This document shows, piece after piece, positions 45,017 to 45,683 of a stretch of DNA of 64,000 nt. The notes under the pieces were generated by a model that saw only the letters and a program-made list of their open reading frames with translations, did not search any database and was not told the origin of the DNA. The stretch is from Clostridiales bacterium DTU069. Its GTDB lineage: Bacteria > Bacillota > Clostridia > DSM-8532. Where the stretch lies: contig LFRV01000079.1 in assembly GCA_001512485.1 (NCBI GenBank), forward strand, positions 58,491-122,490. Direction: 5' to 3'. The translations under genes and the position numbers were made by a program. Every line of letters begins with the position of its first letter. Positions within the stretch are counted from its first letter, which is position 1.

Positions 45017-45057
45017 AACAACCTGCTGAACAATTACTGCGAATTCATGCTGTAAAC

Positions 45058-45125
45058 CAGCGGGTGGTTCGGGCGCTTTCGGTGACGACGGGCGACATGC
45101 TTCGAAGCCCTGCTGCCTACAGGTA
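45058..45125 (+). repeat. 68-bp direct repeat, copy A (5' part of candidate structured RNA, truncated)
   Basis: CAGCGGGTGGTTCGGGCGCTTTCGGTGACGACGGGCG(A)(C/T)ATGCTTCGAAGCCCTGCTGCC(T/C)ACAGGTA; 2 mismatches vs copy B at 45374-45441. Confidence 0.95.
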
Positions 45126-45134
45126 CTTCCTTTT

Positions 45135-45339
45135 GAACTATTGTACAATAACGTCAACAAGGAGCTTCATTTGCAAGAGCTATACAGTTCAGCTCGGGCA
45201 AGTCGAAACTCGCAAAAATGCTTCAGAATAATTTTTGCAGGAAGCATTTTCGCTCAAACAGTCGACTTGCTTATCCTCGCTCTGACTGTATATCTCTAAG
45301 CTTCATTCCGCTATAGTATCCGTTATTGCACAATAGTTC
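45135..45339. mobile_element. 205-bp MITE-like hairpin element
   Basis: 19-bp terminal inverted repeats GAACTATTGTACAATAACG ... CGTTATTGCACAATAGTTC (1 mismatch); interior arms imperfectly complementary around about 45230; no ORF. Confidence 0.7.
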
Positions 45340-45373
45340 TTCCGAGTAGCCCGTGAGAGTTACGCCGAAAAGA

Positions 45374-45571
45374 CAGCGGGTGGTTCGGGCGCTTTCGGTG
45401 ACGACGGGCGATATGCTTCGAAGCCCTGCTGCCCACAGGTAACTGTGGAGCGGGTTAATGAGCGACCCGGGATATGAAGACCTCTACGTAAACGTAAAAC
45501 ATGATCTAAAGAATGTTGCCGGTAGGTGCTTTGTCGCCCCAGGAACCCGAAACACCCGAACCAGGACCCGC
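45374..45571 (+). ncRNA. candidate structured RNA of about 198 nt, copy B; family unknown
   Basis: Ends pair by GCGGGT/ACCCGC, GGTTCGGG/CCCGAACC, TTTCGG/CCGAAA, GGGCG/CGCCC; internal CCACAG-GTAA-CTGTGG hairpin. Strand inferred only from neighbouring genes. Confidence 0.55.
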
Positions 45572-45595
45572 GGGAATAGTGTGCAAACTAGTTTC

Positions 45596-45653: not shown

Positions 45654-45683
45654 TTGTACAGCATTAAGACCCTGTGGTATATT
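45654..45683 (+). promoter_or_regulatory. possible promoter for lepA
   Basis: TTGTAC-N18-TATATT. Confidence 0.4.

What the first reader, a model, noticed from the sequence alone, without database searches (positions are those of the whole stretch)
45374..45571. Candidate new structured RNA between spoIVB and lepA
No convincing ORF spans this stretch, but its two ends form a long interrupted helix: GCGGGT/ACCCGC, GGTTCGGG/CCCGAACC, TTTCGG/CCGAAA, GGGCG/CGCCC (25 bp), separated by an AGG bulge, a CGC/CA loop and a 7x7 internal loop (TGACGAC/CAGGAAC). Inside are CCC-GCT-CCACAG-[GTAA]-CTGTGG-AGC-GGG with a GNRA tetraloop, TACG-TAAA-CGTA, and AACAT/ATGTT enclosed by ACCT/AGGT. This does not look like tmRNA, RNase P, SRP, 6S or group II domain V. 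It could be the RNA of a mobile element (HEARO/omega-RNA type was considered, not established) or a new ncRNA class.
Basis: partly seen in the sequence, partly recalled or inferred. Interest (0 to 1): 0.75.

Follow-up and report, generated by a model that had tools for sequence, protein, structure and literature searches.

The report
Mobile, structured non-coding repeat in Clostridia
The stretch between spoIVB and lepA is one of about 50 copies of a roughly 200-base, non-coding, spreading DNA element whose folded shape and inner core have been preserved across related Clostridia; this points to a small mobile element whose folded strand matters, but what moves it and whether it is copied into RNA are unknown.

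Summary
Window 45371-45573 (+) folds as described, and its two outer helices (P1, P2) are supported by covariation in 63 copies. It matches no Rfam family. It is not a single gene: the genome (2.55 Mb MAG) carries about 55 matches, more than 30 of them full length. Two congeneric Clostridiaceae MAGs carry 43 and 49. Diverged relatives, found with two covariance models, occur in several other genera and one other family, nearly always in several copies. Between lineages the P1 and P2 sequences turn over completely, while the pairing and three core motifs stay (GCUUCGRAGC; GACCCGNGA-GAC; GUGCUU). Empty sites in relatives, species-specific subfamilies, tandem arrays and opposite orientations at one locus (spoIVB-lepA) show mobility. 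G-U pairs outnumber A-C mismatches, which suggests that the + strand is the folded one, but only weakly (P = 0.055). I read it as a non-autonomous mobile element (MITE-like) whose folded + strand, RNA or single-stranded DNA, is needed. The enzyme is unknown: no IS110 or reverse-transcriptase match above the cut-off was found in this genome, and no HEARO match. Transcription is untested. The lepA promoter-like site lies downstream of the element.

The parts
45371..45573 (+). Full-length copy of the repeat (called R), about 200 nt
   Evidence: 55 matches in own genome; nhmmer match 45371-45578; covariance-model match G000:C49:103861-104063, E 4e-51
45376..45397 (+). 5' strand of helix P1 (pairs with 45548-45571; interrupted by a bulge and loops)
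   Evidence: helices 1 and 2 pair in 97-98% of cells; double changes at 5 of 20 pairs, e.g. 45384-45560 UA:34 CG:23
45548..45571 (+). 3' strand of helix P1
45406..45413 (+). 5' strand of helix P2 (GGGCGAYA)
   Evidence: helix 3 pairs in 93% of cells; 4 of 8 pairs with double changes (GC to AU x9, AU to GC x3)
45532..45539 (+). 3' strand of helix P2 (TGTCGCCC)
45415..45424 (+). Core motif 1, GCTTCGAAGC (general form GCUYCNRAGC), conserved in diverged relatives
45435..45450 (+). Hairpin CCACAG-GTAA-CTGTGG, continued by GCT/AGC
   Evidence: helix 2 pairs in 84% of cells, 4 pairs with double changes; variable in many copies
45459..45482 (+). Core motif 2, TGAGCGACCCGGGATATGRAGACC, nearly invariant; GACCCG and GAC kept in distant relatives
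45487..45499 (+). Variable hairpin (TACG-TAAA-CGTA here; other sequences elsewhere, e.g. CTGT/ACAG in G001, a 17-bp stem in G185)
   Evidence: (44% paired with this exact register)
45526..45531 (+). Core motif 3, GTGCTT; its GCTT can pair with GAGC of motif 2
   Evidence: pairing GAGC/GCUU in the diverged clade
45054..45125 (+). Truncated second copy of R (positions 1-72)
   Evidence: (97% identical over 68 nt)
45135..45339 (.). Separate palindromic MITE-like element ('M') with ends GAACTATTGTACAATAACG / CGTTATTGYACAATAGTTC, lying between the two R copies
   Evidence: 113 matches of the end sequence in the genome
45599..45614 (.). M-type end sequence downstream of R; such sequences lie within 80 nt of 25 of 34 R copies in this genome
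45655..45683 (+). Promoter-like site of lepA, kept in G001 and by eye in relatives that lack R; R lies upstream of it, so R is probably not in the lepA 5' leader

Best explanation
R is a non-autonomous mobile element (MITE-like) of about 200 nt. Its ends form a long closing stem (P1), followed by an internal loop, a second stem (P2) and a conserved multi-branched core. The folded + strand, as RNA or as single-stranded DNA, is what selection maintains. Most likely a recombinase or transposase supplied in trans recognises the folded molecule through its core and inserts copies into intergenic sites, preferentially next to other palindromic repeats and into or beside existing R copies. This produces tandem units with about 17-nt spacers, truncated end pieces and opposite orientations. 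Shown: repetition, spread, absence of coding, conserved pairing, conserved core, insertion polymorphism. Inferred: that the folded strand is the substrate or cofactor of the moving enzyme, and that the enzyme acts in trans.
For: About 55 copies in own genome, 43 and 49 in two congeners, patchy elsewhere. spoIVB-lepA lacks R in G019, G004, G007 and G010 but carries it in G000 (+) and G001, G002 (-). These three copies resemble their own genome's copies more than each other (W best match is a G000 copy at 89%; W/L079 81%, W/L092 80%), i.e. independent arrivals. An R locus of G019 is empty in G004 and G010. Tandem units with constant spacer (L082, L089). Covariation in P1/P2 and, separately, in a diverged clade of 15 copies (92.9% paired, 12 pairs with double changes, 0/500 shuffles). 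P1 and P2 sequences replaced wholesale while pairing and core motifs stay. G-U exceeds A-C on the + strand: 46 vs 31 inferred changes, P = 0.055; 88 vs 27 cells in the diverged clade. R sits near palindromic M ends in 25/34 copies vs 4% of random 80-nt windows.
Against: No enzyme or autonomous relative was found, and no copy with a gene between its halves was seen among the loci read. No clear target-site duplication was found at the one empty site aligned. The strand asymmetry is only suggestive. Expression was not examined. Much of the within-genome conservation could reflect recent spread or gene conversion rather than function: in the two same-orientation orthologous pairs, R (98%, 95%) is only slightly better kept than its flanks (94-97%, 80-92%).
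Confidence: 0.55

Rival explanations
1. Ordinary DNA-level MITE: P1 is simply a terminal inverted repeat cut by a transposase in trans, and the interior is passenger sequence whose fold has no role.
For: Terminal inverted repeats, no coding, dispersed intergenic copies, nested with another palindromic MITE. Small bacterial mobile repeats of 100-200 bp with stable folds are common (PMC2229807). No expression evidence.
Against: The interior core is better conserved between lineages than the termini, the reverse of a MITE kept only by its ends. P2, which is not terminal, shows compensatory changes. Wobble pairs favour one strand. No target-site duplication was recognised.
Confidence: 0.25
2. R is the non-coding RNA of an RNA-directed mobile system (guide or scaffold RNA of a nuclease or recombinase such as IscB/TnpB or IS110) acting in trans, as in HEARO-type elements.
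For: RNA-like conserved core with replaceable stems; multi-copy non-coding elements; tandem units with constant spacers, and insertion next to palindromes, would fit a site-specific recombinase.
Against: No HEARO or any other Rfam match. No IS110 recombinase above cut-off in own genome and no correlation with R across the family (own assembly 91% complete). IscB and TnpB were not searched. No variable guide with matches to target sites was identified.
Confidence: 0.15
3. SINE-like retroelement copied by a reverse transcriptase.
For: Truncated copies often stop at the same place: 5' pieces end near nt 36-50, 3' pieces start near nt 144-167.
Against: No reverse-transcriptase match in G000 or G002, although both are rich in R (assemblies 91% and 84% complete). 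Recurrent break points are equally expected at the base of hairpins.
Confidence: 0.04
4. Cis-regulatory RNA of lepA or spoIVB (leader, attenuator or 3'-end element).
For: Lies between the two genes, on the same strand, in this genome.
Against: Orientation is opposite in G001 and G002, and R is absent in other relatives. A lepA promoter-like site lies downstream of R. Neighbours differ from copy to copy, and gene orientations around copies are mixed.
Confidence: 0.03

Closest known systems
bcr repeats of the Bacillus cereus group (bcr1-bcr18)
   Same: Interspersed non-coding repeats of 100-400 bp, tens of copies per genome (bcr1 averages 39), MITE-like; some types (bcr10, bcr18) have conserved secondary structure, and many copies are part of transcripts (PMC6542083, PMC3446304)
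   Different: bcr1 is reported to be restricted to one species group. R relatives span several genera and two families with complete turnover of the stems but a kept core. No sequence comparison with bcr elements was made here.
Small bacterial MITEs (Correia/NEMIS, CIR, RUP, ERIC, BOX)
   Same: 100-200 bp, intergenic, terminal inverted repeats, highly paired transcripts, no proteins (PMC2229807)
   Different: Most are described as A+T-rich with TA target duplications; R is 55-60% GC with no recognised duplication, and its best-conserved part is internal
HEARO / IscB omega-RNA (Rfam RF02033)
   Same: Structured RNA linked to mobile elements
   Different: No covariance-model match; no associated nuclease gene recognised next to any copy seen
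IS110 bridge RNA / IS1111 elements (from general knowledge)
   Same: Structured RNA of mobile DNA; circular intermediates could give tandem units with constant junctions
   Different: No IS110 recombinase above cut-off in the R-rich own genome; no guide loops identified; R has a long closing stem
Integron attC sites (from general knowledge)
   Same: Imperfect palindromes active as folded single strand, arranged in arrays
   Different: R is dispersed and units are separated by about 17 nt rather than by cassettes; attC consensus boxes were not seen by eye

Membership tests
MITE-like non-autonomous mobile element | Many short non-coding copies dispersed in one genome | tested here: met
   no conserved reading frame (frame-breaking indels)
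MITE-like non-autonomous mobile element | Terminal inverted repeats | tested here: met
   P1 arms; perfect 18-bp arms in G185
MITE-like non-autonomous mobile element | Insertion polymorphism (empty sites in relatives) | tested here: met
   spoIVB-lepA and the G019 C145 locus
MITE-like non-autonomous mobile element | Target-site duplication | tested here: inconclusive
   One empty site aligned, flanks too diverged and other repeat remnants present
MITE-like non-autonomous mobile element | Parental transposon with the same ends | tested here: inconclusive
   None seen in matched loci; the whole genome could not be scanned for its transposases
Structured non-coding RNA | Covariation supporting a common fold | tested here: met
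   two independent alignments; P1, P2 and a hairpin; R-scape itself not available
Structured non-coding RNA | Strand preference (G-U tolerated more than A-C) | tested here: inconclusive
   46 vs 31 inferred changes, P = 0.055
Structured non-coding RNA | Transcript of defined ends | not testable with these tools
   No RNA data; no promoter above chance next to this copy
HEARO / omega-RNA | Match to the RF02033 covariance model | tested here: not met
HEARO / omega-RNA | Associated IscB-type nuclease | not tested
   No genome search left; no nuclease gene recognised beside the copies read
IS110 bridge RNA | DEDD recombinase in genomes that carry the RNA | tested here: not met
   no match above cut-off in G000, G002, G019 or G024, all with many copies
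Group II intron / retron / other RT element | Reverse transcriptase in carrier genomes | tested here: not met
   none in G000, G002, G023, G007; no Rfam intron match in the window

The most novel reading that the evidence does not exclude
R is the catalytic or guide RNA of an undescribed kind of RNA-dependent mobile element in Clostridia: the transcribed + strand, not just the DNA ends, directs its own insertion, which is why the internal core and the pairing of freely replaceable stems are preserved across genera and families.
Probability: 0.2. Interest if true: 0.85.

Novelty: new variant of a known kind. Interest (0 to 1): 0.55.

Why it matters
Bacterial MITE-like repeats are usually regarded as deleted transposons kept only by their ends. 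Here the internal core is the best-kept part and the stems change sequence but keep pairing, which implies that a folded strand does something. If that strand is RNA, these genomes (40-60 copies each) hold a new RNA-dependent mobile system; if it is single-stranded DNA, it is a new folded-strand transposition substrate. Either way the family is absent from Rfam and can now be searched with two covariance models.

Tried and rejected
Rfam search of the window and of relatives: no match to R. Plasmid and phage collections with the window copy by blastn: no match. IMG/VR with four motif patterns: none. In-place inversion at spoIVB-lepA, my first reading of the opposite orientations: rejected because the copies are no more alike than random copies of the two genomes. 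Coding: an SD-like GGAG precedes ATG in the core, but frame-breaking indels among copies and stops in relatives rule out a conserved peptide. IS110 and reverse-transcriptase distribution: no correlation with R. The helix CATGCTTC/GAAGCGTG: in the register tested, its pairs fail in most copies. Literature searches for this element or an equivalent: nothing matching found.

Full report
What is there. The window has no match above any Rfam gathering score, and the locus has only trivial matches at E<=10. BLASTN of the 198 nt against the window's own genome gives 55 matches, about 33 of them full length at 80-100% identity. The finding is therefore one copy of a dispersed repeat, here called R. 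A truncated second copy lies at 45054-45125, and a different palindromic element, M, at 45135-45339 between the two.

Is the fold more than chance? The energy alone is only moderately unusual (z = -2.57). On an alignment of 63 copies from five genomes (A1) the 28 pairs of the two outer helices pair in 96.0% of cells. Nine pairs have double changes and 53 cells show them, against 4.1 and 14.1 in shuffles (0/500 reach either), and slid registers pair in only 28-51% of cells. Examples are UA to CG at 45384-45560, GC to AU at 45410-45535 and 45407-45538, and AU to GC at 45411-45534 in copies from three different genomes. Helix P2 is internal, so this is not explained by terminal repeats alone. The shuffle control does not remove relatedness. 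By parsimony on a tree I count 16 double Watson-Crick to Watson-Crick changes.

Relatives. Congeners G001 and G002 (records JAAYXD and JAAYBO, Clostridiaceae MAGs) carry 43 and 49 copies, G019 carries 19 and G007 three. A covariance model of P1+P2, then a second model with diverged members, found further relatives: 13 matches in G024, 8 in G031, 8 in G023, 5 in G006, 6 in G185 of another family, and some in G027, G009 and G397. Eight of 391 sampled genomes of the class have one, so the distribution is narrow and patchy. In these relatives P1 and P2 have wholly different sequences. In G185 P1 is TGACCTCCGGTACCGTTT/AAACGGTACCGGAGGTCA and P2 is GCTGTGTTTC/GAAACACAGC. In G023/G024 P1 is GCGGGTGCAAGG...CCTTGCGCCCGC. 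The pairing and three core motifs remain: GCUUCGRAGC, GACCCGNGA..GAC and GUGCUU. The G023/G024 clade, folded on its own, has P1, a short P2, GAGC/GCUU pairing of motifs 2 and 3 and a hairpin, with 92.9% of cells paired and 12 pairs with double changes. In both groups G-U pairs outnumber A-C mismatches on the + strand: 46 versus 31 inferred changes in P1/P2, one-sided P = 0.055. This suggests, without proving, that the + strand is the folded one.

Mobility. The spoIVB-lepA gap has R in G000 (+), G001 (-) and G002 (-), and none in G019, G004, G007 or G010. The three copies are each closer to other copies of their own genome than to each other, so they arrived independently or were replaced. An R locus of G019 is empty in G004 and G010. 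Two loci (L030/L077 and L036/L082) hold true orthologous copies, 98% and 95% identical, so copies can persist. Copies occur in tandem with spacers of about 17 nt (L082, L089), with truncated 5' pieces downstream and 3' pieces upstream, and as P1-only miniatures (L016, L026, L031). 25 of 34 copies in this genome have an M-type end (ATTGTACAAT, up to 2 mismatches) within 80 nt, against 4% of random 80-nt windows. In G019, R lies inside M-like sequence, and in G024 beside another palindromic repeat family. R thus favours palindromic repeats, including its own ends.

How it works. I think R is a non-autonomous mobile element whose folded + strand is recognised by an enzyme supplied in trans. The core is better kept than the ends, which separates it from a plain MITE. 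Which enzyme is unknown: no IS110 recombinase above the cut-off and no reverse transcriptase was found in this genome, and neither family tracks R across the 32 genomes. HEARO is not supported. A role for this copy in lepA regulation is unlikely: orientation varies, R is missing in relatives, and a lepA promoter-like site (45655-45683) lies downstream of R.

Known kinds. It works like the small mobile repeats of bacteria (review PMC2229807) and resembles the bcr repeats of the Bacillus cereus group in copy number, size and partly structured nature (PMC6542083, PMC3446304). It is new as a family. Its unusual feature is a conserved internal core with freely replaced but always paired stems across genera and two families.

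Noticed in passing
window 45135-45339: M: a palindromic element of about 205 bp with ends GAACTATTGTACAATAACG; the 16-base end sequence has 113 matches (up to 1 mismatch) in the genome, also away from R, and solo 20-bp palindromes GAACTATTGTACAATAGTTC occur.
   Followed up: partly
L014, L022, L028, L039, L079, L093 (5' side of R); L010, L017, L021 (3' flank): A longer form of R carries about 50 extra nt in the 5' P1 arm with its own hairpin (GCCGCG...CGCGGC).
   Followed up: no
L016:1467-1551, L026:1230-1315, L031:956-1040: Miniature copies consisting only of the two P1 arms with about 12 nt between them.
   Followed up: no
L082, L036, L033, L031, L026, L184: Downstream 5' fragments of R often stop at the same place (just before or in the 5' strand of P2, near nt 36), in two unrelated subfamilies.
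   Followed up: partly
G018 and G025, flanks of L144, L184: Another very abundant palindromic repeat (GATCCTTCGACTTCGCTCAGGATGACA type) in genus g2; R relatives in G024 sit beside it.
   Followed up: no
window 45445-45461: GGAG followed 7 nt later by ATG inside the core looks like a translation start; the frame is not conserved among copies.
   Followed up: yes
L141:1860-2039: Cobalamin riboswitch (119.5 bits) about 200 nt from an R relative in G006.
   Followed up: no
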